NCBI GenBank assembly: GCA_024655865.1
Contig: JANLFM010000001.1
Span: 120,572 to 184,571 of the forward strand
Length of the DNA: 64,000 nt
Source of the DNA: Caldisericota bacterium
GTDB lineage: Bacteria > Caldisericota > JANLFM01
Reading direction: 5' to 3'
Below the pieces are notes generated by a model. It was not told where the DNA came from, searched no databases, and saw nothing but the letters and a program-made list of their open reading frames with translations. Below are positions 14,979-58,004 of this stretch, piece by piece (positions within the stretch are counted from its first letter, which is position 1; each line of letters starts with the position of its first letter). The position numbers and the translations under genes are program-made.

Positions 14979-14979
14979 A

Positions 14980-15468: not shown

Positions 15469-15470
15469 TT

Positions 15471-16553
15471 TTACACTCCTTTTGTATGGAGGCGCTCTAA
15501 CCCCTGGCAAACCTTCTCGCTTAGGGAGGACCGCCGGAATTGAGTGAGAAGCATCTTCAGTTCATCAATTTCATCCTTGTTCACCTCATATCCTAAATCC
15601 AGGGCCGTTTGCAGTCCGGATATCCTTCCCTGGAGGGCAGCTGTGGTAGCCTCCTCAATTCCCGCAACATCTCCGGCGACGAAAATTTCAGGATGGGAAG
15701 TGCGACCTGTTTCATCGTGCCAGGGAACAAATCCCCCCAGCTCCGGAATATAGTATTCCCTGACGCCAAGCTCGAAGAGGAGCTCGCTTAAGGGCATCAA
15801 TCCCACCGCCAGAAGGACTACATCCACAGAGAAGGTCCTCTCGGTACCAGGAATGGGCTGAAATTTTTCGTCCACCCCGATGGTCTCCGCTCTCTCCACG
15901 TGTCCCTCTCCATAAACCCCGGTGATGGTCCTTTTCAAGAGAATGGGAACACCTGCCCTTTGAATCTTAGCGGCATGCACCCAGTAAGCTCCACCCAGGC
16001 GAGGAAGGATATCAATAATTGCTTCCACTTTAGCCTGAGCCTGGAGCAACTGGTAGGCCACGATCACTCCTACGTTTCCCGAACCTACAATCAGGTATCT
16101 TTCTCCGGGGAGGACACCATAAACGTTCATCAGGGTCTGCACTGCGCCAGCACCATAAACTCCGGGATAATCGTTGTTCTCGAAGGTAATCATGCGCTCA
16201 GAGGCTCCAGTGGCAATCACTACGCGTTTGGGCTTAATTTTGTAGAAATCCTCCAAATCAGCGGCTAACCAGATTCCGTCTTTATAGGCGCCAATTACTT
16301 CAAATCCTAAAAGGGTTCGAATGCGAGGGTGGTTTTGAATCTCACCTTCCCACTTTTGCGCCAGTTCAAATCCTCGAGCTCCTGCTCCGCGAGCTGCCCA
16401 GCCGAAAAACTTGTGAGTCTGTTTGACTAACTGACCTCCCAGGTTTTGAAATCGGTCCACCAGGAGAACGGTGGCTCCGGCATTGGCTGCAGCGAGTGCC
16501 GCGTTCATACCCGCAGGCCCCCCTCCAACCACCAGGACGTCTGGCTCGATCAT
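15471..16553 (-). CDS. FAD/NAD(P)-dependent oxidoreductase (HcnB/PDH-alpha-like)
   Basis: 360 residues from ATG 16553 (MIEPDVLVVGGGPAGMNA); the ATGA overlap with the upstream gene supports this start over longer alternatives. There are two Rossmann motifs: VVGGGPAGMNAALAAANAG for FAD and IVGSGNVGVIVAYQLL for a second dinucleotide. HPEIFVAGDVAGIEEATTAA is the usual C-terminal FAD motif. It is homologous in layout to HcnB and to the alpha subunit of dye-linked proline dehydrogenase, likely passing electrons from the amino-acid-oxidising subunit to an acceptor. Confidence 0.9.
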   Translation of the reverse strand: MIEPDVLVVGGGPAGMNAALAAANAGATVLLVDRFQNLGGQLVKQTHKFFGWAARGAGARGFELAQKWEGEIQNHPRIRTLLGFEVIGAYKDGIWLAADLEDFYKIKPKRVVIATGASERMITFENNDYPGVYGAGAVQTLMNVYGVLPGERYLIVGSGNVGVIVAYQLLQAQAKVEAIIDILPRLGGAYWVHAAKIQRAGVPILLKRTITGVYGEGHVERAETIGVDEKFQPIPGTERTFSVDVVLLAVGLMPLSELLFELGVREYYIPELGGFVPWHDETGRTSHPEIFVAGDVAGIEEATTAALQGRISGLQTALDLGYEVNKDEIDELKMLLTQFRRSSLSEKVCQGLERLHTKGV

Positions 16554-16858
16554 TTGAGCACTCCCTTGTCTTTTTGAATTTCCACTTTCATCCCTTCCCT
16601 TAATGGCGTGATGCAAGTACGAATGTTTGGCTTGCCATCCACAACCATCAAGCAGGAGGAGCAATTACCGATAGCACAGAAAAAACCACGAGGCCTGTGA
16701 AGGTTCACACTTTCCCTCATCTCATAGAAACCGTTGGCCACGAGAGCTGCAGCAATTGGCTCCCCTTCGTATCCCTCTACCTCTCGCCCTTCAAAAATGA
16801 ATTTAACTTTTTTCTTGGGTGGGAAATTAAGGATAGGATGGACTGTGATCCTGCGCAT
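16550..16858 (-). CDS. [2Fe-2S] ferredoxin-like subunit (HcnA-like)
   Basis: 102 residues. CAIGNCSSCLMVVDGKPNIR followed by TC gives the Cys spacing of a plant-type [2Fe-2S] domain, as in HcnA and the gamma/N-terminal parts of D-hydroxyproline and sarcosine dehydrogenases. It is first of the five-gene operon and overlaps the next gene by ATGA. The preceding ribosome site is AAAGGAGATGAGG. Confidence 0.88.
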   Translation of the reverse strand: MRRITVHPILNFPPKKKVKFIFEGREVEGYEGEPIAAALVANGFYEMRESVNLHRPRGFFCAIGNCSSCLMVVDGKPNIRTCITPLREGMKVEIQKDKGVLK

Positions 16859-42628: not shown

Positions 42629-44170
42629 ATGCCAGATAAGGCGATTTATGAAAAGATGGTAAAAGAGGCTGTAGGGGCTGCGAGGGCTGATTATGGTGTA
42701 ATTAAGCAAAAGAGGGGTGGTCAATTCAAACTTACCGACGCCAAGCCATACGTAGATGCTGCAACCTCAATGAAGCCCGGCCCGGGTCAATCCAAAGAGA
42801 TCTTTGACCTTCACGTTGAGTCCGTAAAAGCCCATTATGACATTTTAGTAGGTCTCACTGATACCATCCGCCCCGAGGACGATCCCTTCGTAGAGCACTA
42901 CCAGACACCCCCCATCCTGGAAATCCTTTATGAGGTAGACCCGGCTTTCAAGGCCTCGATGTGGAAGTTCATCGACGCCATCGCTGCCAACAAAGCCCTA
43001 GTCGGCCGCGAGGCTGCAAGGCGCTACGGTGGCATGTATGGTCCCACCTGTGTTGTGGACTTCGCAATGTCGGTGGGCTCCACTTCCAACGTAGTCAACC
43101 AGATCCTGAGGACCCTGGACATTCCCGCTGACCACAAGAAGACCATTCTCGCTGCCAAGAGCTGGGGAATGAACACCTCCTACGGAATTGGCTCCGCTTT
43201 CCGGGCCGCCGTTGAAGCTGGGAAAACCCTGGCCGAGGCCGAGCAGGCAGAGGTCGAGACGCTCCAGTTCATTTACCGCGAGCCGGTAGCTGCTCAGGCC
43301 CACCTGATGGACACCCATAACCTGGGCGGGCACGGACCGCACACCTCCTTCGATACGAGAAAATACATGGCCCAGTACAAGGAGAGAATCAGGCCATTCG
43401 TCTTGGCTGCTCTGAACGCTAAAGTACATCCTGCAAACATCGTGGTTGTCCCCGCCTACTGCGTGGGTGACGTCGGCCACCATATTGCCCAGTCCGCTTA
43501 TAACATGTTCAAGGATGACATGGTCTTCGGAATCTACGAAGCCGTCACGGACGTCTTAGAGAACACCCTGAGGAAGGGCCTGGAGCTGGATGCTTACAAG
43601 AGTGAATGGGACGTCCTGACTGTGGCAACCGGTGCCCCTGCTGCGGCCACAGCTTACATTCTCTGGTTGGATTCCTTCACCGTTCCCATGGTAATTGACC
43701 TCTTCACCAAGCGCTTCTACAACTATGCCGCCATGAATCCCAAGCGCGGTGAGGCTGATGAGCTCCACAACGTGGACTTCATGGATATCCTCCTCCGCGG
43801 CGAGTCCATCCTGGACATCAGCCCCATCGGCGGTGGCGCCAAGATCAAGGGAATTCCCATCGACTTCAGCCCCATTGACAAGCACGAGGCCGTTTCCAAC
43901 CCGCAGCGCTACACCTATCCCGCCTGCGCCATCACCCAGCGCTTCGCCGCATTGATGAGCCTGGCGGACTTCCCCTGCTATCTCACTCCCGAGTGCGTAA
44001 CGGCGACACTTTCCACTAACTGCATCGCCTTCCACCCAGAGACCCCTGGCGCTCCCGTAAGAGGATGCAAGCACTGCGCTGCCACCACCTTAATTAAGAG
44101 GAACGTTCCCTTCGTCAAGGGAGTCGGAAAAGGCAACAAGGGTTACTGCCAGTGGGATGTAGCCGTATAA
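42629..44170 (+). CDS. DUF2193 family protein
   Basis: 513 residues with an excellent ribosome site (AAAGGGGGAC). I recognise the DUF2193 family, otherwise known to me mainly from methanogens; its reaction is unknown. Conserved-looking blocks: DPFVEHYQTPPILEILYE near residue 90, GPTCVVDFAMSVGSTSNVV near 145, KSWGMNTSYGIG, VPAYCVGDVGHHIAQSAYN near 280, and YPACAITQRF. A Cys-rich end follows (CKHCAATTL... GYCQWDVAV). Cys/His richness suggests a metal or redox site. There are no membrane segments. Codons are visibly biased to C- and G-ending forms, as in a highly expressed gene. It directly precedes the H4MPT cluster but has its own strong terminator. Confidence 0.85.
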   Translation: MPDKAIYEKMVKEAVGAARADYGVIKQKRGGQFKLTDAKPYVDAATSMKPGPGQSKEIFDLHVESVKAHYDILVGLTDTIRPEDDPFVEHYQTPPILEILYEVDPAFKASMWKFIDAIAANKALVGREAARRYGGMYGPTCVVDFAMSVGSTSNVVNQILRTLDIPADHKKTILAAKSWGMNTSYGIGSAFRAAVEAGKTLAEAEQAEVETLQFIYREPVAAQAHLMDTHNLGGHGPHTSFDTRKYMAQYKERIRPFVLAALNAKVHPANIVVVPAYCVGDVGHHIAQSAYNMFKDDMVFGIYEAVTDVLENTLRKGLELDAYKSEWDVLTVATGAPAAATAYILWLDSFTVPMVIDLFTKRFYNYAAMNPKRGEADELHNVDFMDILLRGESILDISPIGGGAKIKGIPIDFSPIDKHEAVSNPQRYTYPACAITQRFAALMSLADFPCYLTPECVTATLSTNCIAFHPETPGAPVRGCKHCAATTLIKRNVPFVKGVGKGNKGYCQWDVAV

Positions 44171-44204
44171 GGCTACCTCCTTTTGGTGGTTTAGTGTAAT
44201 TTAT

Positions 44205-44242
44205 GCCACTGGTGAGGGAATCCCTCACCAGTGGCTGTTTTT
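44205..44242 (+). terminator. Intrinsic terminator of the DUF2193 gene
   Basis: A perfect 15-bp inverted repeat (44205-44219 with 44221-44235) followed by TGTTTTT. One of the best terminators in the window; it isolates the DUF2193 transcript from mtdB. Confidence 0.92.
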
Positions 44243-44349: not shown

Positions 44350-45228
44350 ATGAAAAACGTACTTATTTACCTTGATACTGATAAAAGAGCCAGCCTTTTT
44401 GACATCCTTTTTTCCTACGATGTCGGGTATGATGTAGTGGTCCCACTGGGAGGGGTTACGGCTGATGAAGTGAGAGCACTGGTTCAGGATGCCATGTTTC
44501 CCAGGGGACCGCAGGGAGCGAAATGCACCACCCTCTTCTTTGGCGGAAGCAACCCTGAGGAGGCCGAGGAGATGGCAGAAATTGCGAGGAAGACTATGTT
44601 CCCGCCCTTCCAGCTTTCCGTCGTTATCGACCCCAAAGGAGCATTCACCACGTCCTCTGCCATGATCGCAAAAGCTGTGGAGGCCTTGAAAACCAGAAAC
44701 GAAAGCCTTCAGGGTAAGAGGGCCCTGATCCTCGCCGGAACCGGACCTGTAGGAAGAATCGCCGCCAGGATCCTCGCAAAAGAGGGCGTGAATGTTTTCC
44801 TTACTTCCCGTTCAAGCAAAAAAGCTGAAGAAATCGCGGAAAAGGTAACTCAAAAGGTGGGAAAACTCGTGAAAGGGGTAAAAGCGGAAACCCCGGAGGA
44901 AGTCTTCGCGCTGGCTCAAGATTGCGAGCTCCTCCTTTCCACGGGAGCTGCGGGAGTGGAATTAATCCCCCAGAGTTATGTCGAGAAACTTTCTAAATGC
45001 CTTGTTGCTGTGGATGCTAACGCTGTCCCTCCCACTGGAATTGGCGGCGTCAATCCCGGCGACGACAAGAAGGAAGTCGGGAAAGCACTGGCAGTTGGGG
45101 CGCTCGCCGTAGGCGGTTTGAGGAACAAGATCGCACGGAAAATGCTCCAGGTGGCAATGGAAACCGGGGGATCTTTCCTCGATTACGAAAGCGGGTACAA
45201 ATTTGCAAAGGAACTGGTGGGGTTTTAG
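44350..45228 (+). CDS. mtdB: Methylene-tetrahydromethanopterin dehydrogenase, NAD(P)-dependent
   Basis: 292 residues from ATG 44350, five bases after GGAGG. It interconverts methylene- and methenyl-H4MPT with NAD(P). The N-terminal pterin domain shows SYDVGYDVVVPLGGVTADEV and MFPRGPQGAKCTTLFFGG, both typical of MtdA/MtdB. The Rossmann motif ILAGTGPVGRIAARILAKEG is near residue 130. The VVPLGGVTADEV and PRGP blocks fit the H4MPT-linked MtdB branch. It opens the C1 cluster; every later gene through the nucleotidyltransferase is on the same strand with short gaps or overlaps. Confidence 0.92.
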   Translation: MKNVLIYLDTDKRASLFDILFSYDVGYDVVVPLGGVTADEVRALVQDAMFPRGPQGAKCTTLFFGGSNPEEAEEMAEIARKTMFPPFQLSVVIDPKGAFTTSSAMIAKAVEALKTRNESLQGKRALILAGTGPVGRIAARILAKEGVNVFLTSRSSKKAEEIAEKVTQKVGKLVKGVKAETPEEVFALAQDCELLLSTGAAGVELIPQSYVEKLSKCLVAVDANAVPPTGIGGVNPGDDKKEVGKALAVGALAVGGLRNKIARKMLQVAMETGGSFLDYESGYKFAKELVGF

Positions 45229-45243
45229 GCAATTATAGAAAAA

Positions 45244-46416
45244 TTGCGCATCCTGATTACGGGTTTTTCAACCAGAGGGATTGCGGAAGCCGCAGTAAGG
45301 AGTGGATATTCTGCGGTAACCATCGATTTCTTTGGCGATTACGATCAGCGCTTGCTTGTGAAGAATTACTCCTTAATGCGGGACTTTGGACTCTCCTTTT
45401 CTACAAAAAACATTTTGCAGGTTTCAAGCAAAATCAAAACGGAAGCCGATGCTCTGGTCTACATTTCCCCCTTTGAGAACCATCCCGGGGACGTGCAGAG
45501 AATGAGCCGCGGTCGCATGCTCCTGGGGAACGCTCCGGAATCATTGAGAAAAGTACGCAACTGGCGCCTTATCCGTTCTTTCTTAAAGGAAGAGGGTATC
45601 GGTTTTCCGGAAACCATCTTCACGGGGGAGACGCTCCCCCAGTCCGGAACCTGGGTAGTAAAACCGGTAAAAAGCGGCGGTGGTCATAGGATTAAACTCT
45701 GGCAGGGTGAACGGCTGAAAAAGGGATACTTTCTGCAAAAGCTGGTAAATGGCATTCCTTGCTCAGCAGTTTTCGTAGCCAATGAAGAAAAAAGCGTGCT
45801 CCTGGGAATCACGGAGCAGTTAATCGGAAGGCCCGAATTAGGGTCCAGGGGGTTTACCTGGTGCGGCAACATTACCCCTGTTGAACTGGATAAAGAAGCC
45901 CTTGAGACTTTAGTTACAAGAATTGATGAGATCGCTTTTAAGCTAACCAAGTTCTTCGGGCTCAGGGGCATTAACGGCTTCGATTTCATTCTCTCCGAAC
46001 CAGATAACGCACCCGTCCTTGTGGAAATCAATCCCAGGTATCCAGCTTCCGTGGAAATAATTGAAGCAGCTTTTGGCCTTCCCGTCTTCGACATCCATGT
46101 CAGGGGATGCCTGGGAAAGCTTCCAGATTTCTCTCTGGGCGAGCGACTTAATAACCCTCGTTATTACGGGAAAGCTATTGTCTATGCGAAGGAAGACGTG
46201 AGAATTCCTCCTGAGGCCGCTTATTGGGTTCTTTTAAAAAGAAAGGACGTACCCTTTCCGGGCGAAACTATCAGGAAAGGGCACCCTATCTGCACTGTGT
46301 TTGCCACCGGCGAGACGAGAGAGGAATGTTGGAACGCTCTTTTGACTGAGGCGGGGAAATTAGAAGCAGAACTCAAACCCTGCCTTATCTTGACATCCAA
46401 GGAGAAAGAAGAATGA
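45244..46416 (+). CDS. ATP-grasp protein of H4MPT gene clusters (OrfY-like)
   Basis: 390 residues; TTG 45244 is the likely start, 15 bases after mtdB, without a clear ribosome site. N-terminal Rossmann-like part (ILITGFSTRGIAEAAVRSGY), then an ATP-grasp domain: GTWVVKPVKSGGGHRIKLW, LVNGIPCSAVFVANEE, and the metal/ATP segment VLVEINPRYPASVEI. Such ATP-grasp ligases occur in methylotroph H4MPT clusters (OrfY), where a role in cofactor synthesis is assumed but unproven. Its ATGA overlap with fwdD ties it to the operon. Confidence 0.8.
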   Translation: MRILITGFSTRGIAEAAVRSGYSAVTIDFFGDYDQRLLVKNYSLMRDFGLSFSTKNILQVSSKIKTEADALVYISPFENHPGDVQRMSRGRMLLGNAPESLRKVRNWRLIRSFLKEEGIGFPETIFTGETLPQSGTWVVKPVKSGGGHRIKLWQGERLKKGYFLQKLVNGIPCSAVFVANEEKSVLLGITEQLIGRPELGSRGFTWCGNITPVELDKEALETLVTRIDEIAFKLTKFFGLRGINGFDFILSEPDNAPVLVEINPRYPASVEIIEAAFGLPVFDIHVRGCLGKLPDFSLGERLNNPRYYGKAIVYAKEDVRIPPEAAYWVLLKRKDVPFPGETIRKGHPICTVFATGETREECWNALLTEAGKLEAELKPCLILTSKEKEE

Positions 46417-46754
46417 AAAGCTGGAAATTCTTGTTAATTACGGGCCGCAGCTTAAAACAGGGGCAAGCGGCCGAACAAGGAAAGTTCTCCCCGGAATACA
46501 TTAATGAGACCACTACCGTAGAGATTGGTAAAGAGGACGCCGAAAAACTCGGGTTAAGTGATGGTATGGAAGTAAAGTTAAAAAATACCTGCGGGGAGGG
46601 CATCTTTCATGTGCGGATCTCTCAGGGGTTGCCCTCCGGAATCCTGTTCATCCCCTACGGCCCTTCAGCTAACTTACTCATTCCCGCAGAGACCGGAGGC
46701 ACCGGAATGCCCGGTTGCAAAGGGATTGATGTAGAACTTTTGAAGGAGAGATAA
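46413..46754 (+). CDS. fwdD: Formylmethanofuran dehydrogenase subunit D (molybdopterin-binding)
   Basis: 113 residues, the molybdopterin-dinucleotide-binding beta-barrel domain of Fwd/Fmd enzymes: LITGRSLKQGQAAEQGKFSP at the start, then VEIGKEDAEKLGLSDGMEVK, and GPSANLLIPAETGGTGMPG near the end. With FwdB it should hold the bis-molybdopterin Mo or W cofactor. This subunit is not part of the hydrolytic Fhc complex of aerobic methylotrophs. The stop (TAA) and the fwdB ATG are directly adjacent. Confidence 0.9.
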   Translation: MKSWKFLLITGRSLKQGQAAEQGKFSPEYINETTTVEIGKEDAEKLGLSDGMEVKLKNTCGEGIFHVRISQGLPSGILFIPYGPSANLLIPAETGGTGMPGCKGIDVELLKER

Positions 46755-48023
46755 ATGGAAACTATAAGTGCAACCTGTCCGTTTTGCGGATGCCTTTGCG
46801 ATGATATCCAGATTGTTGTGGAGAATGGGAAAGTGCTGGAGGTGAAAAATGGGTGCAGCATCTCTAAGACTTTGTTCACCCACCATGATCCGGATGATCT
46901 GGTACCGCAAATTGAGGGCAAGAAAGCGAGCCTGGAGGAAGCTCTTGATAGGGCAGCCTCCATCATCCGCCAGGCTCGCTTTCCGCTCGTGTTTGGGCTT
47001 TCCATGACAAGCTGCGAAGCCCAAAGGAAGGCTGTGGAACTTGCGGAGTTCATCGGAGGGAATATCGACAGCACTTCAACGTTCTGCCATGGTCCCACAA
47101 CACTTGCCATGCAATCGGTTGGGGAACCAACCTGCACCCTTGGAGAGATTAAAAATCGAGCGGACCTGGTGGTATTCTGGGGATGCAACCCGGTGGAGGC
47201 CCACCCAAGGCACATTGCCAGATATTCGGTGTCACCGAAGGGGTTGTTCAACCCTGCCGGGAGGAGAGGAAGAACCGTGGTAACGGTGGATGTAAGGGCT
47301 ACCCCTACAGCTCGGGTCTCGGATATTTTCCTCCAAATCCAGCCTCACAAAGACTACGAGGTATTTGAGGTGCTCCGGGCTCTCCTTAAGGGAAAAGACC
47401 TGCGCATTGACAGTGTGGGCGGAATCCCCCTTGATGCCCTGAAAGACCTGGTGAACAAAATGAAGAGCTGCAAATTCGGGATCATTCTCTTCGGCATGGG
47501 TTTGACGATGACCAGGGGCCGACACCTGAATATAGAGGCTGCCATCTCGCTCGTTCGAGACCTCAACCAGTTCACCAAGTTCCTGATTATCCCGATGAGA
47601 GGGCACTATAACGTCACTGGAGCAGATGCTGTGCTCACCTGGCAGACAGGATACCCCTACGCTTTAAACTTCAGCCGTGGTTATCCACAATATAATCCAG
47701 GAGAATTTACTACCGTTGACCTTTTGCGCAGGAAGGAAGTGGACGCGGCTTTAATCCTTGCATCAGATCCCATGGCCAGTTTGCCCCGCCAGGCATCGAG
47801 TTATCTGGAAGAAATTCCTTTTGTAGTGCTGGATTGCAGGAAAAGCTATTCTGCCAGTTTCGCTACCGTTTTTATACCTGTGGCTGCTTCAGGAGTGAGC
47901 ATCTCCGGGACCGCCTATCGCATGGATGGTGTTCCCGTCCTTTTAAAAAAGGTCCTGGATTCCCCGCACCCCACGGATGAACAAGTTCTGGATGGCATAC
48001 TCAAGAGGTTAAGGCAAAGATGA
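46755..48023 (+). CDS. fwdB: Formylmethanofuran dehydrogenase subunit B (catalytic Mo/W)
   Basis: 422 residues. An N-terminal cluster motif CPFCGCLCDDI (Cys8, 11, 13, 15) with Cys34 in KNGCSISK can bind [4Fe-4S]. STSTFCHGPTTLAM places Cys111 where methanogen FwdB has its catalytic Cys or selenocysteine. VFWGCNPVEAHPRH and VTVDVRATPTA are typical of the family. The subunit should reduce CO2 to formate, or the reverse, at Mo/W-bis-molybdopterin. Genes for the polyferredoxin subunits FwdF/G are absent here, so the electron partner is unknown. ATGA overlap with fwdA. Confidence 0.93.
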   Translation: METISATCPFCGCLCDDIQIVVENGKVLEVKNGCSISKTLFTHHDPDDLVPQIEGKKASLEEALDRAASIIRQARFPLVFGLSMTSCEAQRKAVELAEFIGGNIDSTSTFCHGPTTLAMQSVGEPTCTLGEIKNRADLVVFWGCNPVEAHPRHIARYSVSPKGLFNPAGRRGRTVVTVDVRATPTARVSDIFLQIQPHKDYEVFEVLRALLKGKDLRIDSVGGIPLDALKDLVNKMKSCKFGIILFGMGLTMTRGRHLNIEAAISLVRDLNQFTKFLIIPMRGHYNVTGADAVLTWQTGYPYALNFSRGYPQYNPGEFTTVDLLRRKEVDAALILASDPMASLPRQASSYLEEIPFVVLDCRKSYSASFATVFIPVAASGVSISGTAYRMDGVPVLLKKVLDSPHPTDEQVLDGILKRLRQR

Positions 48024-49654
48024 TTCGCATAACCAAAGGAAAAGTATATGACCCGATAAATGGCATCAACGGCAAGGAATTAGATATCTGGGTTGATGGG
48101 GGAAAAATCGTTCAGGTCGGTGACGCCCCGGATCTCGTTGCCGAGCGCATAATTGATGCCGAAGGTTGCATCGTAATGCCGGGAGGAATAGATATCCATT
48201 CCCATATTGCTGGGGGTAAAGTCAATCTTGGCAGGAAACTGAGGCCAGAAGATCATCGCAAGGACGTTGTGCCCAGAACAGAGACAACCCGCTCCGGAGT
48301 GGGCCACTCCATTCCTTCCACTTTCGTTACCGGTTATCGGTATGCGCAAATGGGTTACACCATGGTCATGGAAGCTGCGATGCCTCCATTAACGGCAAAA
48401 CACACTCACGAGGAATTGCACGACATTCCTATAATTGACAAGGGCTCCTATACCCTGATGGGAAACAACCACTTCATTTTAAAGTTCATCGAAAAGGGTG
48501 AAATTGAGAAAGTGAAGTCCTTCATCTCCTGGTTATTGAAAACCACCAAGGGTTATACGATCAAAATCGTCAATCCCTGTGGGGTCGAAAGCTGGAAGTG
48601 GGGGAAAAATGTGGAAAACATTGACCAGCAGGCTGCCGATTACGCCGTCACCCCAAGACAACTGATTTCCATTTTGTCCCAGATAGCGGATGAGCTCGGT
48701 CTCCCCCACTCCATCCACCTGCACTGTAACAACATCGGAGTTCCGGGAAACTACGAAACCACCGTTGAATCGATGAAGGCCACGGGTACAAACAGAGTCC
48801 ACGTCACTCATGCTCAGTTTAATAGTTACGGAGGAAAGGGCTGGGCTGATATCCACTCAAAAGCTCGGGAGGTCGTCGAGTACGTAAATGAGCACCCAAA
48901 CGTCACTTTTGATGCTGGGCAAATCGTGTTCGGCGATACCACAACCATGACCGCCGATGGACCATGGCAGTATCGTTTATATCTTTTATCGGGAAACAAG
49001 TGGGTCAACGCCGATGTGGAAATGGAGACCAGTGCTGGTATCGTACCCTATACCTTCCGCAAGAAAAGCCTGGTCAATGCCGTCCAGTGGGCAATTGGTC
49101 TGGAACTAATGCTTCTCGCCGAGGATCCCTGGAGGGCGTTCATGACCACTGACCATCCAAATGGGGGGCCCTTCACCTTCTATCCCCAGATCATCAAACT
49201 CTTAATGAGCAGAGCCGCAAGGGAAGAGATGATTGCTCAACTTCCCAGGAGAGCTCTCGAAAGGATCTCTCTTCCCCAAATTACCAGAGAATACTCCCTT
49301 TACGAGATAGCGATAATTACCAGAGCTGCTCCCAGCAAGCTTCTCGGGTTACACCAGAAGGGGCATCTGGGTGTCGGGGCGGATGCGGACATCGCTATTT
49401 ACAGGGAAAACCCTGACGTTGAGAAAGTGTTCTCTTCCGTCCAGTATTTGCTCAAAGATGGGGAGGTCGTGGTAGAAAACGGCATTGTGCTCAAAAGCAC
49501 CTCGGGGAGAATCCTCTATGTGGATCCCGGGGAAGAAGGAGATATTGAGGAATACATCCGTGAGGAGTTCGAGAAGTTCTACACAGTCACTCTGGATGGC
49601 TATGGAGTTCCTGAAAATTACCTGGAGCGGGGTGAATGCGTATCATGTGGATAA
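48020..49654 (+). CDS. fwdA: Formylmethanofuran dehydrogenase subunit A (amidohydrolase)
   Basis: 544 residues of the amidohydrolase superfamily. It condenses formate with methanofuran or hydrolyses formyl-methanofuran. Binuclear metal motif DIHSHIAGG (His60, His62); Lys181 in TIKIVNPCG stands where the carboxylated lysine is expected; SIHLHCNNIGVPG supplies further His ligands. FMTTDHPNGGPFTFYPQ is a family signature. In methanogens a tunnel links this site to the FwdB site. It overlaps ftr by 19 bases. Confidence 0.94.
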   Translation: MIRITKGKVYDPINGINGKELDIWVDGGKIVQVGDAPDLVAERIIDAEGCIVMPGGIDIHSHIAGGKVNLGRKLRPEDHRKDVVPRTETTRSGVGHSIPSTFVTGYRYAQMGYTMVMEAAMPPLTAKHTHEELHDIPIIDKGSYTLMGNNHFILKFIEKGEIEKVKSFISWLLKTTKGYTIKIVNPCGVESWKWGKNVENIDQQAADYAVTPRQLISILSQIADELGLPHSIHLHCNNIGVPGNYETTVESMKATGTNRVHVTHAQFNSYGGKGWADIHSKAREVVEYVNEHPNVTFDAGQIVFGDTTTMTADGPWQYRLYLLSGNKWVNADVEMETSAGIVPYTFRKKSLVNAVQWAIGLELMLLAEDPWRAFMTTDHPNGGPFTFYPQIIKLLMSRAAREEMIAQLPRRALERISLPQITREYSLYEIAIITRAAPSKLLGLHQKGHLGVGADADIAIYRENPDVEKVFSSVQYLLKDGEVVVENGIVLKSTSGRILYVDPGEEGDIEEYIREEFEKFYTVTLDGYGVPENYLERGECVSCG

Positions 49655-50532
49655 ATGGAGTAGAAATTGAAGATACCTTTGCCGAGGCCTTCAAAATGTA
49701 TGCCGCGAGGATCATCGTCACGGCCGTTAACCGCCAATGGGCTTTGGAAGCAGCAACCAAGTTATCCGGCTTTGCCACCTCCATCATCGCTTGCGGATGT
49801 GAGGCAGGAATAGAAGCGGAAATTTCTCCGGAAGAGACTCCCGATGGTCGTCCCGGGGTATCTGTGCTCCTCTTTACCATGGGGAAAAAGGGAATGGAGG
49901 AACAACTGCTTAATCGCATCGGCCAGACAGTTATGACCTGCCCGACAACTGCCTGCTTTAACGGAGTAACCTCCCAGGAAAAGGTTAAGGTCGGCGGAAA
50001 ACTGAGGTACTTCGGAGATGGTTTTCAAATAAGCAAGCTTCTTGGGGAAAGAAGGTTCTGGCGAATCCCGGTCATGGAAGGAGAATTTCTGGTGGAGGAC
50101 TATTTCGGGATCCAACCAGCGGTGGGGGGAGGAAATTTTCTCATCCTGGGGGAAACTCCGGAGCAAACCCTGAAGGCGGCGGAGAGAGCTGCCGAGGCTT
50201 CAAGGAGTGTCAAAGGGGTAGTGCTGCCTTTCCCGGGTGGGATCGTCAGAAGTGGAAGTAAAGCGGGCTCCAGATACAAATTTCTGCGCGCCTCCACCAA
50301 CACGGCTTTCTGCCCCACGATCAGGGAGCAGGTGAAATCCGAACTCCCACCTGGAGTGAATTGTGTCCTGGAGATAGTCATCGATGGCCTGGATGAGGAA
50401 GTTATCCGGCAATCGATGAAGCGCGGCATTGAAGCAGCCTGTATCGAGGGCATAAAGAGGATTTCCGCAGGAAATTATGGGGGTAAGCTTGGTCCCTTCC
50501 ATTTTTATCTCCATGAATTATTCAAACAATGA
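49636..50532 (+). CDS. ftr: Formylmethanofuran:H4MPT formyltransferase
   Basis: 298 residues, standard length (FhcD in methylotrophs). It moves the formyl group between methanofuran and N5 of H4MPT. Typical: INGVEIEDTFAEAFKMYAAR at the N-terminus, ACGCEAGIE, TCPTTACFNG near residue 100, and FCPTIREQVKSELPPGVNCV near the end. ATGA junction with fwdC. Confidence 0.96.
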   Translation: MRIMWINGVEIEDTFAEAFKMYAARIIVTAVNRQWALEAATKLSGFATSIIACGCEAGIEAEISPEETPDGRPGVSVLLFTMGKKGMEEQLLNRIGQTVMTCPTTACFNGVTSQEKVKVGGKLRYFGDGFQISKLLGERRFWRIPVMEGEFLVEDYFGIQPAVGGGNFLILGETPEQTLKAAERAAEASRSVKGVVLPFPGGIVRSGSKAGSRYKFLRASTNTAFCPTIREQVKSELPPGVNCVLEIVIDGLDEEVIRQSMKRGIEAACIEGIKRISAGNYGGKLGPFHFYLHELFKQ

Positions 50533-51374
50533 GCGGGGTTGGAGAAATGAATGAGATCTTATTGAGACCAAAAGTTGAATTCGACGTCCCGGTGGAAGCT
50601 GAGGTCATTTCGCCAGACCTCTTCGCTGAAAAAAGCCACGAGGAGATTGGAAGCCTGCCTGTTTTTTTAGGCAACAGGAAAATGTGCCTGAAGGACCTAT
50701 TCGAAATAGAAGGTCAGTCCTCAACGAACATTGTCCTGGAGGGCGACTTTTCCCGGGTGAAAAAAATCGGTTACGGCATGTCTCGAGGGAAAATTCACAT
50801 TAAAGGTAACGTGGGAATGCACACCGGAGCCACTATGAAAGGCGGGGAAATCATCGTTGAGGGTGACGCTATGGACTGGCTGGGTGCCGAAATGAACGGC
50901 GGATTGATTTGGGTTAAGGGCAGTGTTGGCCACTTCGCGGGAGCATCCTACTGGGGGAGTAAGCATGGAATGAATCGGGGCATGATCCTGATCGAGGGAA
51001 ATACCGGAAACGAAGTAGGAAAGAAAATGCGCAGGGGCACAATCGCCATAAAGGGAAAAACGGGAGACTTTTTGGGAGTAGGTATGATCGGAGGAACTAT
51101 CCTTGCCTTTTCTGAGACCGGAGAAAGACCAGGAGCCGAGATGAAGAGGGGAAGCATTGTTCTCTTTCTGGAAAACTGTACCAACCCTCCTCCGCTTCTT
51201 CCCACCTTCACTTATAACTGCACATACAGCCCTACCTTCCTTAGGGTTTACCTAAAAACCCTAAGGAAACTCGGATTTCCGGTTAAGGAAGAGTACATTT
51301 CTGGGAAGTACAGGCGCTATAACGGGGACATCGTGGAATTAGGGAAAGGAGAGATCCTGATTTATGAACCCTGA
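50529..51374 (+). CDS. fwdC: Formylmethanofuran dehydrogenase subunit C (beta-helix)
   Basis: 281 residues. A right-handed beta-helix built from G-x-x-M-x-x-G repeats: YGMSRGKIHIKGNVGMHTGA, MKGGEIIVEG, MNGGLIWVKG, MNRGMILIEG, MRRGTIAIKG, MIGGTILAF, MKRGSIVLF (residues ~75-215). It resembles the C-terminal domain of glutamate synthase and structurally joins the A and D/B subunits. The start of mch lies inside its last codons. Confidence 0.95.
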   Translation: MSGVGEMNEILLRPKVEFDVPVEAEVISPDLFAEKSHEEIGSLPVFLGNRKMCLKDLFEIEGQSSTNIVLEGDFSRVKKIGYGMSRGKIHIKGNVGMHTGATMKGGEIIVEGDAMDWLGAEMNGGLIWVKGSVGHFAGASYWGSKHGMNRGMILIEGNTGNEVGKKMRRGTIAIKGKTGDFLGVGMIGGTILAFSETGERPGAEMKRGSIVLFLENCTNPPPLLPTFTYNCTYSPTFLRVYLKTLRKLGFPVKEEYISGKYRRYNGDIVELGKGEILIYEP

Positions 51375-52305
51375 GCTCAGTTTAAACCTTCAAGCCGAAA
51401 AAATAGTTGAGCGAATGATCGAACAAGCCCCCATCCTGGGTATAACCGTCAAGGAACTGGGAAACGGTTCTAAAATTTTGGATGCTACTTTCGGAGGATA
51501 CCGGGCCGGCAAATTGTTCGCAGAGGTGTGCATGGGTGGACTGGGAGAGGTTACCCTTACCTCTCTGGAATTCTCCTCCCTTTCCTTGCCGGGGGTGAGC
51601 GTCTCCGTTGAGTATCCCTTCCTTGCCTGTCTTGCTTCCCAATACGCTGGCTGGAGCATCAAGGTGGGCAGTTTCTTTGCCCTGGGCTCAGGACCGGCAC
51701 GGGCTTTAGCGCGAGTAGAGAAACTTTTTGAGGAGTTGAAATACGAAGAGAGCGCGGACAGGGCGGTAATAGTTCTGGAATGCAGAAATGCCCCAAGCGA
51801 GGAGGTCGCGAATTATGTAGCTCAACAATGCCGGGTGAAACCTGAAAACCTCTATATCCTTTTTGCCCCCACAGCAAGCCTCGTGGGTTCCATCCAGATT
51901 GCCGCGCGAATAGTTGAAACAGGGATGCATAAGATGAAGGAATTGGGGTTCGACATCAAGAAAGTACTCGCAGGCTACGGTACCTGCCCCATCGCCCCTA
52001 TTGCTAAGGACGACCTCCAGGCTATTGGAAGAACTAACGACTGCGTTCTTTACGGTGGCAAGGCTTTCTATCTGGTAGAGGACAATGAGAACCTGATTGC
52101 CGATATAGTATCTGAAGTACCCTCCTCCGCTTCCCGAGATTACGGAGCCCCCTTCCTGGAGTTATTCAATCGCTATGGAAATTTCTACGATATCGATCCC
52201 ATGCTCTTCAGCCCGGCTGAGGTCTATGTGAACAACCTGACAAATGGAAAAACTTACCACGCAGGGCAACACAACCTGGAAATCCTTCAGAGATTGCTGA
52301 GTTGA
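51364..52305 (+). CDS. mch: Methenyl-H4MPT cyclohydrolase
   Basis: 313 residues, standard for Mch, which hydrolyses methenyl-H4MPT to formyl-H4MPT. Visible: LNLQAEKIVERMIEQAP, CMGGLGEVTLTSL, GWSIKVGSFFALGSGPARAL near residue 98, GTCPIAPIAKDDLQAIGRTN near 205, and LVEDNENLIADIVSEVPSS. It overlaps fwdC by 11 bases and abuts the next gene by TTGA. Confidence 0.96.
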   Translation: MNPELSLNLQAEKIVERMIEQAPILGITVKELGNGSKILDATFGGYRAGKLFAEVCMGGLGEVTLTSLEFSSLSLPGVSVSVEYPFLACLASQYAGWSIKVGSFFALGSGPARALARVEKLFEELKYEESADRAVIVLECRNAPSEEVANYVAQQCRVKPENLYILFAPTASLVGSIQIAARIVETGMHKMKELGFDIKKVLAGYGTCPIAPIAKDDLQAIGRTNDCVLYGGKAFYLVEDNENLIADIVSEVPSSASRDYGAPFLELFNRYGNFYDIDPMLFSPAEVYVNNLTNGKTYHAGQHNLEILQRLLS

Positions 52306-53180
52306 AAATAGGAATACTGGGGCAAAGGAGAAGCTGGCACGTCCAGACTTTACAGGATGCCTTTTTAAGAAAAGGGGCCGTTTGCGATTTTCTCTCTATC
52401 ACCCGTATCGTAGCTGGAATTTTCCAGAGACCCTATGCCTCTACCGAAGGGCGGATACTGGAGAGCTACGACGCTCTGGTTGTGAGAAGCATCCCCTCTG
52501 GATCGCTTGAGCAGATTATTTTCCGCGTGGACGTCCTGCACAGGCTGGAGAACCTTGGTGTCAAGGTAATCAATTCCGCCACTACCCTGGAAAGGAGCGT
52601 GGACAAGTATTACACCTCTTCTCTCCTTGAGGACGCCGGCATCCCTACTCCCCGCACTATAGTGGCGGAGCGCTTCGAAAACGCCATGGAAGCGTTCCTC
52701 CAATTTAAGGATGTTGTGGTCAAGCCCCTTTTTGGCTCGGAAGGGAAGGGAATTGTCAGAATCCAGGATGAGGATATGGCATACAGGGTATTCAAGGCTC
52801 TGGAGTTAGGAAATTACATCTTCTACATTCAGGAGTTTATCCCTCACCGAAACCGGGACATCAGGGTTTTCCTCGTTGGTGACGAACCAATAGCAGGAAT
52901 GGTAAGGGAAAGCGATCTATGGAAAACCAATATCGCAAGGGGGGCTAAAGCCCAGGCCCTTGAGCTTACCACTACTCTGAAAGACCTCAGCATCAGAGCC
53001 GCCAAAATCCTGGGGGCATTTTATGCAGGAGTGGACATTCTGGAAAGCGAGGATGGGAAATTGTTCGTGACCGAGGTTAACGGGATTCCAGGCTGGCATG
53101 GCTTGCAGAGCACTACGGATATCAACATAGCTGAGCGCATAGCGGAACACGTGATTATGCTGACTCAGGAGCAAAGATGA
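52302..53180 (+). CDS. RimK/MptN-like ATP-grasp ligase (Orf17-like)
   Basis: 292 residues; TTG start overlapping the mch stop. ATP-grasp elements: VDKYYTSSLLEDAGIPTPRT, VVVKPLFGSEGKGIVRIQDE, EFIPHRNRDIRVFLVGDEPI, and VTEVNGIPGWHGLQ. The family adds glutamate to cofactors or proteins; MptN adds alpha-glutamate to H4MPT in methanogens, and Orf17 occupies this cluster position in methylotrophs. Tailoring of H4MPT or methylofuran with glutamate is the likely role, unproven here. Shares four bases with the next gene. Confidence 0.85.
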   Translation: MKIGILGQRRSWHVQTLQDAFLRKGAVCDFLSITRIVAGIFQRPYASTEGRILESYDALVVRSIPSGSLEQIIFRVDVLHRLENLGVKVINSATTLERSVDKYYTSSLLEDAGIPTPRTIVAERFENAMEAFLQFKDVVVKPLFGSEGKGIVRIQDEDMAYRVFKALELGNYIFYIQEFIPHRNRDIRVFLVGDEPIAGMVRESDLWKTNIARGAKAQALELTTTLKDLSIRAAKILGAFYAGVDILESEDGKLFVTEVNGIPGWHGLQSTTDINIAERIAEHVIMLTQEQR

Positions 53181-54055
53181 AAAAAGGTAATAAAGCCCGC
53201 CTGAGCGCAAAAGAGGTGTCACAATTAGCGCAAATTGCCTGTCTTTTGGAAGTCACTGCGGAGAAACCCGGCAATGTCACCCGGTGGAAAGATGCCAGTG
53301 ATATGGGCTATTTGGATTTTCTTTTAAGCGCCGTGGCTATAGCACCGGCCATCGAGAGCGCCAGGAACAAAGCTGTGGGGGAGGTGATTTTGAAGGCCAT
53401 CAGGGATACGCACCGCTTCACCTCTTTTAATACCAACCTAGGGATCGTGCTTCTTTTCGCCCCCATAGCGAAAGCATATTTCTCTGGCAGTAACCTCAGG
53501 GATTCCTTGCATGGGGTTCTTTCTTCCCTCACCGTAGAGGACGCGCAGAAAACCTACGAGGCGATCAGGATCGCTAATCCAGGTGGAATGGGAAAAATCG
53601 AAAAGTATGATATCAGTCAGAAAGAAGTGGACATCAACTTAAAGAAGGCTATGGAATTAGCGCAGGACAGGGACCTGATCGCCAAAGAGTATGTGACCGA
53701 CTTCGAAATTACTTTTACCCTGGGAGTCCCAGAACTGATGAAAAACTGGAGGAAGTTAGGAAGCTTATTGGATTCGATCGTACAAACCTTTCTCGTTATC
53801 CTCTCCCAAAATTGGGACTCCAAAATTTCCCGTACGCATGGGAAAAAAGTCGCCCAGGAAGTCACCTCCAGGGCAAATGAAATTCTCGAAGCAGGGGGAA
53901 TTTATACTCCTCTTGGTAGGAATTTACTTACCCAATTCGATCTTTTTTTGAGAGAGAACAAACTGAACCCCGGTACTACAGCAGATCTGGTCACGGCTTC
54001 TCTATTCGTGGCATTTCTTGAGGAGGGCCTCGAAGAATTCTTCAAAGAGCATTGA
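53177..54055 (+). CDS. CitG-like (triphosphoribosyl-dephospho-CoA synthase family) protein, copy 1
   Basis: 292 residues of the CitG family. LLEVTAEKPGNVTRWKDASD at the N-terminus, ATP-binding SFNTNLGIVLLFAPIAKAY near residue 95, and TTADLVTASLFVAFLEEG at the end. CitG makes the prosthetic-group precursor of citrate lyase, but no citrate lyase genes are here. Relatives in H4MPT clusters (Orf5) are thought to act in methanopterin or methylofuran metabolism. ATGA overlaps on both sides couple it to the ATP-grasp and nucleotidyltransferase genes. Confidence 0.85.
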   Translation: MKKGNKARLSAKEVSQLAQIACLLEVTAEKPGNVTRWKDASDMGYLDFLLSAVAIAPAIESARNKAVGEVILKAIRDTHRFTSFNTNLGIVLLFAPIAKAYFSGSNLRDSLHGVLSSLTVEDAQKTYEAIRIANPGGMGKIEKYDISQKEVDINLKKAMELAQDRDLIAKEYVTDFEITFTLGVPELMKNWRKLGSLLDSIVQTFLVILSQNWDSKISRTHGKKVAQEVTSRANEILEAGGIYTPLGRNLLTQFDLFLRENKLNPGTTADLVTASLFVAFLEEGLEEFFKEH

Positions 54056-55077
54056 ACCCGATGGATAAGCCTATAGAAGGCTATTACCTCGAATCGGTGG
54101 AGGGGTTTTTCTTTGCCGTAAAAGGGGTGATCCACCCTCCTTGTAGGATTTTCGCTATCTTAAGATACGCACCGGATGAAGCAGGAGAAAGGGTCAGAAA
54201 AGGAATCCGCTATCGCAGACTGTACGAGTTTGAAGAGCAGCAAGCCCTGCTTGAAAAGAAAAACCCTTCTTACCTATTATTTGATCCCATTTTGGGAACC
54301 TGGGTCCAGTGCGTTCCCAACGAGCTTATAGGAAAGATCCACAGTCCCCGCCTGAAGCTGGAGGAATTTCGCCACAGGGAGCTGGACGAGGTGGAAACGG
54401 ACGTCCTTCAGCTTGCTGAGCTCCTCGAAAAGGAATCGGGAATATGGGGCTGGGATTTAGGCGTTTCTGGTTCCGTTCTCCTTGGGCTTCACCTGTCAGA
54501 TTCGGATATTGACCTCGTCGTATATGGCGCTGAACCCTCGAGAAAGGTCTATGCGACCTTAACCAGGTTAATAGAGGGCTCCGTTGGCGGTCTTAAAAGG
54601 TTGGACATGGAAGATTTAAGGCAGCTCTACAGGCGCCGTTCTCAAGAAAGAGCTGTCTCTTTTGAAATGTTCCAAAAAACGGAACACGGTAAGGTGTTAC
54701 AGGGTAAATTCCGGGGGAGGGAGTATTTCATCAGGCTGGTAAAGGAACCCTGGGAAGTAAATGAGAAATACGGTGATAAAATATATTCCTCCCTGGGAAA
54801 GGTTAAAATTAGAGGAAAAGTCAAGGATGCGAGCGAAGCTTTTTTCACTCCCTGTACCTATAAAATCGAGGAGGTTGAAGTTCTGGAAGGTAAAACCGCA
54901 GCCATCCCCGGGGAGATAGTCTCCTTTCGGGGGAGATTTTGCGAGCAGGCAAAGGAGGGAGAGATCGTCCTGGCCAGGGGAAAATTAGAAAAAATACTTT
55001 CCAATGAAGGGAAGGTAAATTACAGGATCCTCCTCTGCGACTCTGAAGATTTCATGATTCCGGAATTTCCAGATTAG
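54052..55077 (+). CDS. Predicted nucleotidyltransferase, archaeal COG1665-like
   Basis: 341 residues. After a ~110-residue N-terminal domain comes the polymerase-beta-type motif GSVLLGLHLSDSDIDLVV: Gly140-Ser141, with Asp152 and Asp154 as metal ligands. A C-terminal beta-rich part follows, ending in a small OB-like segment (EIVLARGKLEKILSNEGKVN). The nearest family I recall is the archaeal predicted nucleotidyltransferase COG1665. It overlaps the CitG-like gene by ATGA and is last in the cluster, so a step in C1-cofactor synthesis or modification is suggested by position only. Confidence 0.7.
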   Translation: MNPMDKPIEGYYLESVEGFFFAVKGVIHPPCRIFAILRYAPDEAGERVRKGIRYRRLYEFEEQQALLEKKNPSYLLFDPILGTWVQCVPNELIGKIHSPRLKLEEFRHRELDEVETDVLQLAELLEKESGIWGWDLGVSGSVLLGLHLSDSDIDLVVYGAEPSRKVYATLTRLIEGSVGGLKRLDMEDLRQLYRRRSQERAVSFEMFQKTEHGKVLQGKFRGREYFIRLVKEPWEVNEKYGDKIYSSLGKVKIRGKVKDASEAFFTPCTYKIEEVEVLEGKTAAIPGEIVSFRGRFCEQAKEGEIVLARGKLEKILSNEGKVNYRILLCDSEDFMIPEFPD

Positions 55078-56285: not shown

Positions 56286-56930
56286 CTAATATAACTCATT
56301 ATGATCCAATATTGCGCCCTCTCTTCCCAAAAGGAGTGCCCTCTTCAGATCTGATGGTGAATTGATGTTGAAGAAGCTAATCATTTGAGGGTCAAAATTT
56401 ATGATCTCTTCCTCCTCCAGGTACCTCACGTGGAGGTTTGAAAGAGCGAGCGTGAGCTTAAGGAGGTTTTTCTCCAGATCACTTTTAAAAGCGGGAAGGC
56501 ATTCTCTGGAGTAGAGCGCATGGAGGGGTTGAACTTTGCCTTTAAGACGGGGGACAACCGCATCGAATCCTGGAACAATTTCGACCATATGCAGGAGAAG
56601 GGTGCGATTAAGAAAGGGCATGTCGCATCCAAAAGCAAAGGCCAGTTGAGTTTTGCTCGAAGAAATTCCGGTATAGAGTCCCCCAAGCGGCCCGCGTGCC
56701 GGGAAAATGTCGGGTATTATTCTCGTTTTAGGGTGATGCATGGGCAGGGTCTGATCATCAGAGATTACCAGAATCTCATAACTGAGGAGTTCCACCCTTT
56801 TTATAACCCACTCGAGCAGGGGTTTTCCCAAAAAGGGCAGGGTGGCTTTACTTCTCCCCAGGCGCTTTCCCTGCCCACCAGCAAGAATTATAGTGCTGAC
56901 CCTTTGGGAAATAGAGTCGAGGTTCTCCAT
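56286..56930 (-). CDS. mobA: Molybdenum cofactor guanylyltransferase MobA
   Basis: 214 residues, slightly above the usual ~195. It attaches GMP to molybdopterin to make the dinucleotide cofactor. N-terminal GTP site STIILAGGQGKRLGRSKATL at residues 12-31, then PDIFPARGPLGGLYTGI and FAFGCDMPFLN with the metal Asp. Its product is what the Fwd B/D subunits need, which fits the location facing the fwd genes. It follows the second CitG-like gene by 27 bases. Confidence 0.93.
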   Translation of the reverse strand: MENLDSISQRVSTIILAGGQGKRLGRSKATLPFLGKPLLEWVIKRVELLSYEILVISDDQTLPMHHPKTRIIPDIFPARGPLGGLYTGISSSKTQLAFAFGCDMPFLNRTLLLHMVEIVPGFDAVVPRLKGKVQPLHALYSRECLPAFKSDLEKNLLKLTLALSNLHVRYLEEEEIINFDPQMISFFNINSPSDLKRALLLGREGAILDHNELY

Positions 56931-56957: not shown

Positions 56958-58004
56958 CTAAAACCGTAGACCGAGAAGAAAGGCTATGAACAAAGTGGCC
57001 GCAGTAAAATCAGCAGCGGTTGCAGGGTAAAGTTCCCCCTCAGATTGGCTCAGTTCCTGATCCAGTTCCAGTAAAGCCTCGGTTCCCTCTTTAGTCCTCA
57101 AACCGCCCAGTTTGAGAATTTCCTTCGCTTCATGCGAGATTTCCTGGGCTTTGTTTCTGCCGATATTAACCGCTTCGCGAATATCTCTGGCATTCTTTAA
57201 TCCCACCCACCTGGCTATGCAGGGATCTCCTTGCTCAAAGCTGGCAAGGATTGTCAGGAAAGCTTCTACAGTTGCCGTGTTTATGTCCCTGGTCTCCCTG
57301 AAACTGTTAATCAAGGTTGGGTAGCCAATCTTAAAGCAGGTGGATTTAAGTCCATTCGCCCATTCCTGCGCAAATTCATCCCAGGTGCAGGCTTTCATGG
57401 CCTCATAAAGGGTAATTCCCTGGGATATAATTTTAGACTCCGCCTCCTCATCAAATATGTCAGGTACTTCCACCTCGGCGGTCTCCGAGAGGCGCCCCAA
57501 CTCCTCGGGGGAACAGCCCATGCGCATTACTTGATAGAAATCAACCGCGTCATGGGAAGTGGTCGAAGAAATAACCTCACTGATATTTTCCTGCAAGCCT
57601 TCCAGGGTCAAGGTACCCTTTTCGGCAAAGGTTTTACCGCTTGCAGCTGCGATCGGAACAAATAAAAGAATCGGTCCCGAGTGAGTATCCCCTCCCAGGT
57701 GCCACAGACGCACGCTCTCCATCCCCTGTTTTATCAGGTTACCAATACGGATATTGGAGATTTTTAGCTTTTTTTCTCCGGCGCGGATCCCCCTTAGGGC
57801 AGCTTCGCGAATCGTGGGTCCAATCGCCACCCCACCGGTCAGGAAATGCTCATATGTCCCTGCGCGTCGAAGAGGGAGATCAGCAGTTTTGCTTACGCTC
57901 CCAGGTTTTGGTCCGGTACTGACCTCAACTATTGAAGCGAGCTGACCGCAAAGCATAATGTAATCCGCAATCTCTTGCCTGGAAGAGGAAACAAGCTTCG
58001 TCAT
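56958..58004 (-). CDS. CitG-like (triphosphoribosyl-dephospho-CoA synthase family) protein, copy 2
   Basis: 348 residues, a divergent paralog of the copy at 53.2 kb. N-terminal SIVEVSTGPKPGSVSKTADL, central SGPILLFVPIAAASGKTFAE, and ATAADFTAATLFIAFLLG at the end align with the other copy. An additional ~40 residues lie in the middle. It heads the minus-strand unit with mobA. No ribosome site is evident and the predicted promoter leaves a very short leader. Role unknown; probably a cofactor step, by analogy. Confidence 0.8.
   Translation of the reverse strand: MTKLVSSSRQEIADYIMLCGQLASIVEVSTGPKPGSVSKTADLPLRRAGTYEHFLTGGVAIGPTIREAALRGIRAGEKKLKISNIRIGNLIKQGMESVRLWHLGGDTHSGPILLFVPIAAASGKTFAEKGTLTLEGLQENISEVISSTTSHDAVDFYQVMRMGCSPEELGRLSETAEVEVPDIFDEEAESKIISQGITLYEAMKACTWDEFAQEWANGLKSTCFKIGYPTLINSFRETRDINTATVEAFLTILASFEQGDPCIARWVGLKNARDIREAVNIGRNKAQEISHEAKEILKLGGLRTKEGTEALLELDQELSQSEGELYPATAADFTAATLFIAFLLGLRF

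What the first reader, a model, noticed from the sequence alone, without database searches (positions are those of the whole stretch)
44350..53180. Bacterial H4MPT/methanofuran C1 operon with a probably redox-active formylmethanofuran dehydrogenase
Seen: mtdB, fwdD, fwdB, fwdA, ftr, fwdC and mch in one overlapping plus-strand array. FwdB keeps Cys8/11/15/34 and Cys111 at the catalytic position (STSTFCHGPT), and a FwdD subunit is present. Known: in aerobic methylotrophs the related Fhc complex lacks the Mo/W redox function and has no FwdD. Inference: this bacterium runs true CO2/formyl-methanofuran redox chemistry, either an archaeal-type methyl branch of CO2 fixation or reversible C1 oxidation, with an unknown electron partner because FwdF/G are missing.
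Basis: partly seen in the sequence, partly recalled or inferred. Interest (0 to 1): 0.82.

Follow-up and report, generated by a model that had tools for sequence, protein, structure and literature searches.

The report
Redox-competent formylmethanofuran dehydrogenase operon in bacterium
A Caldisericota-type bacterium carries an archaeal-style enzyme set that should directly interconvert carbon dioxide and a carrier-bound one-carbon unit; its active site is intact, unlike the related but inactivated version used by methanol-eating bacteria, so it may be a surviving relative of that version's ancestor.

Summary
One tightly packed plus-strand array (44350-55077) encodes MtdB, an MfnD-like ATP-grasp ligase, FwdD, FwdB, FwdA, Ftr, FwdC, Mch, an MptN-like ligase and two further proteins. 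FwdB keeps the four [4Fe-4S] cysteines and Cys111 in a CHGP motif that lines up with the catalytic Cys/SeCys of solved archaeal FwdB, and FwdD is present. The host is a Caldisericota-type bacterium; of 54 genomes of its phylum only its genus has Ftr. Trees of FwdA, Ftr and FwdC put it in a bacterial clade with the inactive methylotroph Fhc complex, sister to a Bathyarchaeota group with the same gene order. So 'redox-competent bacterial Fwd' is supported by sequence. 'Archaeal methyl branch of CO2 fixation' is not: both genomes of the genus lack acetyl-CoA synthase, MetF, Mer and Fae; this genome also lacks formate-H4F ligase and any recognisable formate dehydrogenase. Best reading: a truncated CO2 <-> methylene-H4MPT module, most likely oxidising C1 units (e.g. 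from glycine) to CO2. FwdD-bearing bacterial Fwd was already known in outline (PMC5020050, PMC7325909), so this is a new, well-resolved variant, not a new kind.

The parts
42629..44170 (+). DUF2193 protein (PF09959), upstream neighbour, 94% identical in the sister species; function unknown; probably its own transcript
   Evidence: Pfam 766 bits
44205..44235 (+). terminator-like hairpin, 14 pairs, stem invariant between the two species
44350..45228 (+). MtdB-like NAD(P)-dependent methylene-H4MPT dehydrogenase (ATG at 44350 preceded by GGAGG; ORF opens at TTG 44338)
   Evidence: Mpt_N PF09176; E=6e-50 to MtdA structures
45244..46416 (+). ATP-grasp ligase, weakly MfnD-like (possible methanofuran biosynthesis)
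   Evidence: PF02655 80 bits; MfnD model 20 of 400 bits
46413..46754 (+). FwdD, molybdopterin-dinucleotide-binding subunit
46755..48023 (+). FwdB, catalytic subunit with Cys8/11/15/34 and Cys111-His-Gly-Pro
48020..49654 (+). FwdA, formyl-methanofuran amidohydrolase subunit, metal-site His/Lys/Asp conserved
49636..50532 (+). Ftr, formyl-methanofuran:H4MPT formyltransferase
50529..51374 (+). FwdC
51364..52305 (+). Mch, methenyl-H4MPT cyclohydrolase
52302..53180 (+). RimK-family ligase close to MptN (H4MPT:alpha-L-glutamate ligase)
   Evidence: MptN model 291 of 350 bits; tree with Bathyarchaeota
53177..54055 (+). CitG-like protein (PF01874), probable cofactor biosynthesis
54052..55077 (+). nucleotidyltransferase-like protein (PF01909), also next to Bathyarchaeota fwd loci
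56286..56930 (-). MobA-like molybdopterin guanylyltransferase near the operon (bis-MGD cofactor)
56958..58004 (-). second CitG-like protein

Best explanation
A redox-competent bacterial formylmethanofuran dehydrogenase module. FwdB/FwdD hold a Mo- or W-bis-MGD centre that interconverts CO2 and formate inside the complex; FwdA condenses formate with methanofuran (or releases it); Ftr moves the formyl group to an H4MPT-type carrier (probably glutamylated, given the MptN-like gene); Mch and MtdB take it to methylene-H4MPT with NAD(P)H. With no Mer, MetF, acetyl-CoA synthase or Fae, and in this genome no formate-H4F ligase or recognisable formate dehydrogenase, the route is a truncated CO2 <-> methylene-H4MPT branch. 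I think it most likely runs oxidatively, turning amino-acid-derived C1 units (glycine cleavage genes are present) into CO2 and low-potential electrons, perhaps passed via ferredoxin to the NuoEF-linked [NiFe]-hydrogenase. Shown: genes, intact ligands, absences in family searches, phylogeny. Inferred: activity, metal, direction, C1 source and electron partner. (My confidence is about 0.8 for redox competence alone, about 0.6 for the whole statement with the oxidative direction.)
For: CHGP with Cys111 conserved in all 78 archaeal/PDB FwdB compared (one SeCys position) and in both species here, lost in all eight other bacterial FwdB/FhcB compared. FwdD present. FwdA metal ligands conserved. MoaA found and a MobA-like gene near the operon. 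RFAP synthase of H4MPT biosynthesis occurs in this genus and not in three other genomes of the family. No CdhC, MTHFR, Mer, Fae, nor FTHFS in this genome; the only other Molybdopterin-domain match in it is a NuoG/HoxU-like hydrogenase subunit. Complete gcvT-H-P1-P2 set. NuoE/F-like subunits with a [NiFe]-hydrogenase.
Against: No biochemistry. The direction is not fixed by sequence; CO2 reduction to methylene-H4MPT for glycine/serine synthesis fits almost as well. No gene shown to link H4F-bound and H4MPT-bound C1 (GcvT may use only H4F). The polyferredoxin subunits of archaeal Fwd are not in the locus and were not searched genome-wide. MobA is also next to the inactive operon on L100, so its nearness does not prove FwdB is active. 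The sister genome has formate-H4F ligase genes, so that absence is not a genus trait.
Confidence: 0.6

Rival explanations
1. CO2-reducing use: the module feeds CO2-derived methylene-H4MPT into glycine/serine (a reductive-glycine-like assimilation), driven by H2 through the hydrogenase and ferredoxin.
For: All steps are reversible in the known archaeal enzymes; gcvT-H-P1-P2 and a [NiFe]-hydrogenase/NuoEF cluster are present; no other C1 entry found in this genome.
Against: No carboxylating pathway shown to depend on it; formyl-MFR synthesis needs very low-potential electrons and no dedicated electron subunit is in the locus.
Confidence: 0.25
2. Fhc-like hydrolysis: despite intact ligands the complex only transfers and hydrolyses the formyl group, releasing formate.
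For: Phylogenetically sister to Fhc with the same B-A-Ftr-C order; FwdA site conserved in both.
Against: Catalytic Cys, His, Gly, Pro and FwdD kept, as in every archaeal enzyme compared and in no Fhc compared; this genome has no FTHFS and no recognisable FDH to use formate.
Confidence: 0.1
3. Archaeal-type Wood-Ljungdahl methyl branch for CO2 fixation.
For: Enzymes of the first steps are present.
Against: No CdhC, Mer or MTHFR in either genome of the genus.
Confidence: 0.03

Closest known systems
Archaeal Fwd/Fmd of a Bathyarchaeota subgroup (loci L002-L008, L011, L013, L022, L065)
   Same: same order fwdD-B-A-ftr-C-MptN-like; FwdB 50-55% identical; all catalytic ligands; sister clade in FwdA, Ftr and MptN-like trees
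   Different: host is a bacterium; mch follows fwdC and is not from the same group; MtdB-type dehydrogenase; no acetyl-CoA synthase or Mer
Fhc formyltransferase/hydrolase of methylotrophic Proteobacteria (fhcBADC; PDB 6s6y)
   Same: same B-A-Ftr-C order, sister clade (both within one bacterial clade, 100/99 in FwdA+Ftr+FwdC), MtdB and ATP-grasp neighbours
   Different: Fhc has lost the catalytic Cys/His and FwdD; here both are kept; no Fae here
Hakuba Actinobacteria fwdDBA-ftr-fwdC (PMC7325909) and FwdD-bearing Firmicutes, Synergistetes, NC10 (PMC5020050)
   Same: bacterial Fwd with FwdD; catalytic Cys118 reported for Hakuba
   Different: Hakuba has CODH/ACS and H4MPT-synthesis genes were not observed there; here the reverse. 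Their sequences could not be put in my trees.

Membership tests
Fwd/Fmd (redox formylmethanofuran dehydrogenase) | FwdB family match with catalytic Cys/SeCys | tested here: met
   TIGR03129 568 bits; Cys111 aligned with 5t5i Cys118 and 9sfi SeCys position
Fwd/Fmd (redox formylmethanofuran dehydrogenase) | N-terminal [4Fe-4S] cysteines | tested here: met
   Cys8/11/15/34
Fwd/Fmd (redox formylmethanofuran dehydrogenase) | FwdD subunit | tested here: met
   E=1.5e-20 to 8rja_D; below the cut-off of the W-FwdD NCBIfam model
Fwd/Fmd (redox formylmethanofuran dehydrogenase) | FwdA binuclear metal-site residues | tested here: met
   equivalents of 5t5i His57, His59, Lys178, His229/231, Asp385 conserved
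Fwd/Fmd (redox formylmethanofuran dehydrogenase) | polyferredoxin/electron subunits FwdF/FwdG | not tested
   not in the array; no genome-wide search made
Fwd/Fmd (redox formylmethanofuran dehydrogenase) | Mo/W cofactor and activity | not testable with these tools
   needs protein
Fhc (formyltransferase/hydrolase) | B-A-Ftr-C operon and relation to the Fhc clade | tested here: met
   sister to Fhc inside one bacterial clade
Fhc (formyltransferase/hydrolase) | catalytic Cys and FwdD lost | tested here: not met
   both retained
Wood-Ljungdahl pathway | acetyl-CoA synthase (CdhC/AcsB) | tested here: not met
   PF03598 absent in G000 and G050
Wood-Ljungdahl pathway | methylene-H4MPT/H4F reductase (Mer, MetF) | tested here: not met
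H4MPT formaldehyde oxidation (methylotrophy) | Fae | tested here: not met
   PF08714 absent

The most novel reading that the evidence does not exclude
The operon is a living redox-active relative of the ancestor of bacterial Fhc: bacteria received a working CO2-linked Fwd from Bathyarchaeota-like archaea, used it without Wood-Ljungdahl or methylotrophy, and the redox centre was later lost at least twice (in the Fhc line and in the operon on contig L100).
Probability: 0.45. Interest if true: 0.75.

Novelty: new variant of a known kind. Interest (0 to 1): 0.57.

Why it matters
The role of H4MPT/methanofuran genes in bacteria that are neither methylotrophs nor acetogens is an open question (PMC5020050 calls it enigmatic). 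Here is a compact, nearly complete case: intact active site, cofactor-biosynthesis context, and a clear list of what is absent. It makes the proposed route from archaeal Fwd to bacterial Fhc testable with one expressible operon.

Tried and rejected
Chimera/contamination of the window: rejected (189-kb contig, same composition, same operon in a second species on a 492-kb contig). Counting L100 as a second copy in the genus: not done, because it is a short 8.9-kb contig with 42% G+C (host about 51%) in a bin with 6% contamination; its 4-mer profile is not decisive. FwdB tree: run, but the fast-evolving Fhc branches left the order unresolved, so I rely on FwdA, Ftr and FwdC. The FwdC tree alone (quick, midpoint root) does not by itself show the bacterial clade. 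AlphaFold of DUF2193: mean pLDDT 34, unusable, no fold search made; no PDB or plasmid relatives. An N-methyl-amine source via the SoxA/SoxB-like genes at 13.5-16.7 kb: only 23% identity to the oxidase next to Ftr in L078; left as a lead.

Full report
Observation. From the ATG of mtdB at 44350 to 55077 eleven plus-strand genes follow each other; from the MfnD-like gene on, neighbours abut or overlap by 4 to 19 bases: mtdB, MfnD-like ATP-grasp, fwdD, fwdB, fwdA, ftr, fwdC, mch, MptN-like ligase, CitG-like, nucleotidyltransferase-like. DUF2193 precedes them, separated by a 14-pair terminator-like hairpin whose stem is unchanged in the sister species. Overall the numbers of promoter- and terminator-like sites in the region equal chance; only this hairpin stands out by length and conservation.

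Host. The window is part of a 1.82-Mb genome in 63 contigs, 96% complete. A congener is the record 'Caldisericota bacterium A05DMB09' (G050; its 492,904-base contig is L075), with the same operon in the same order (FwdB 81%, Ftr 88%, DUF2193 94%). Of 54 genomes in the phylum only these two have Ftr. The operon has the G+C of its surroundings and a similar 4-mer profile, so the acquisition is not recent.

Active site. In an alignment of 88 FwdB sequences Cys111-His-Gly-Pro is invariant in 78 archaeal or PDB rows (one with X, the selenocysteine position of 9sfi) and in the two Caldisericota rows. It is lost in all eight other bacterial rows: L100 (WLGP), a Clostridia bacterium (L078), and six plasmid-borne proteobacterial Fhc. 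No FwdD match was found in those operons, whereas it is present here. FwdA metal ligands are conserved throughout. MoaA is present and a MobA-like gene lies next to the array. The only other Molybdopterin-domain match in this genome is a HoxU/NuoG-like subunit beside a [NiFe]-hydrogenase. So FwdB is the only obvious bis-MGD enzyme seen with that family model.

Phylogeny. Ftr: bacterial clade (Caldisericota, L100, Clostridia, Fhc including Methylorubrum) 100/96, sister (99/98) to a Bathyarchaeota subgroup. FwdA: bacterial clade 99/98, with the same sister 97/97. Concatenated FwdA+Ftr+FwdC: bacterial clade 100/99, with Caldisericota+L100 sister to Clostridia+Fhc; a tree joining Caldisericota+L100 to Bathyarchaeota without Fhc is rejected (AU p=0.0004; the tool warns that long branches can share in such a result). 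That Bathyarchaeota subgroup has the same fwdD-B-A-ftr-C-MptN-like order. FwdB itself is unresolved. Mch does not come from the same group, and MtdB is of the methylotroph type, so the array is a mosaic. Taken at face value, the redox centre was lost independently on L100 and in the Fhc line; this depends on L100 and on bacterial lineages I could not sample.

Pathway. RFAP synthase (H4MPT biosynthesis) occurs in this genus and not in three other genomes of the family. Absent from this genome: CdhC, MTHFR, Mer, Fae, FTHFS. FTHFS is present in the sister genome, partly on doubtful short contigs, so that absence may be species-specific. Present: FolD, gcvT-H-P1-P2, and a [NiFe]-hydrogenase with NuoE/NuoF-like subunits and a 1024-residue NuoF-NfnB-like protein. 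Hence no Wood-Ljungdahl pathway and no formaldehyde-activating methylotrophy; the branch ends at methylene-H4MPT. I favour oxidation of C1 units to CO2 with release of low-potential electrons (inference); the reverse for glycine/serine synthesis is not excluded.

Known work. FwdD in Synergistetes, Firmicutes and NC10 was noted by Chistoserdova (PMC5020050), who called the role in non-methanogenic, non-methylotrophic species enigmatic. Merino and colleagues (PMC7325909) described fwdDBA-ftr-fwdC with the catalytic Cys in Hakuba Actinobacteria, which have CODH/ACS but in which H4MPT-synthesis genes were not observed. An archaeal origin of the bacterial H4MPT branch has been argued before (Adam et al. 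2019, doi 10.1038/s41564-019-0534-2, cited there; I could not read it). My additions are the Caldisericota case with H4MPT synthesis but without Wood-Ljungdahl genes, the sister relation to Fhc, and the hint of repeated inactivation.

Limits. Absences rest on HMM searches of draft genomes. FwdF/G, SHMT and F420 genes were not searched genome-wide. Sampling of bacterial Fwd is narrow (one genome-collection scan, plus plasmids).

Noticed in passing
window 42629-44235: DUF2193, described by Pfam as archaeal and reported as conserved in methanogens (PMC9431491), is the best conserved gene of the locus (94%) and is followed by a terminator-like hairpin with a stem unchanged between the two species.
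   Followed up: partly
L100 1-8860 (G050 contig C2): A second, FwdD-less operon with an inactivated FwdB (SSSSLWLGPE), MobA-like, MptN-like and MfnD-like neighbours; G+C 42%, probably from another organism in the bin.
   Followed up: partly
window 53177-55077 and 56958-58004; L004, L007, L017 and others: CitG-like (PF01874) and nucleotidyltransferase-like proteins lie near fwd/H4MPT genes both here and in many Bathyarchaeota: candidates for missing cofactor-biosynthesis steps.
   Followed up: no
window 13537-16664: Minus-strand genes for a SoxB-like FAD oxidase, a 4Fe-4S protein and a SoxA-like flavoprotein (sarcosine-oxidase family, below model cut-offs); a possible N-methyl C1 source.
   Followed up: partly
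L116 and L120 (G000 contigs C62 and C29): Two similar molybdopterin-synthesis gene clusters in the same assembly, one with a broken moaA frame; perhaps a second strain in the bin.
   Followed up: no
L122 7472-17269 (G000 contig C60): Group-3-like [NiFe]-hydrogenase joined to NuoE/NuoF/NuoG-like subunits and a 1024-residue NuoF-NfnB-like fusion; a candidate electron partner.
   Followed up: partly
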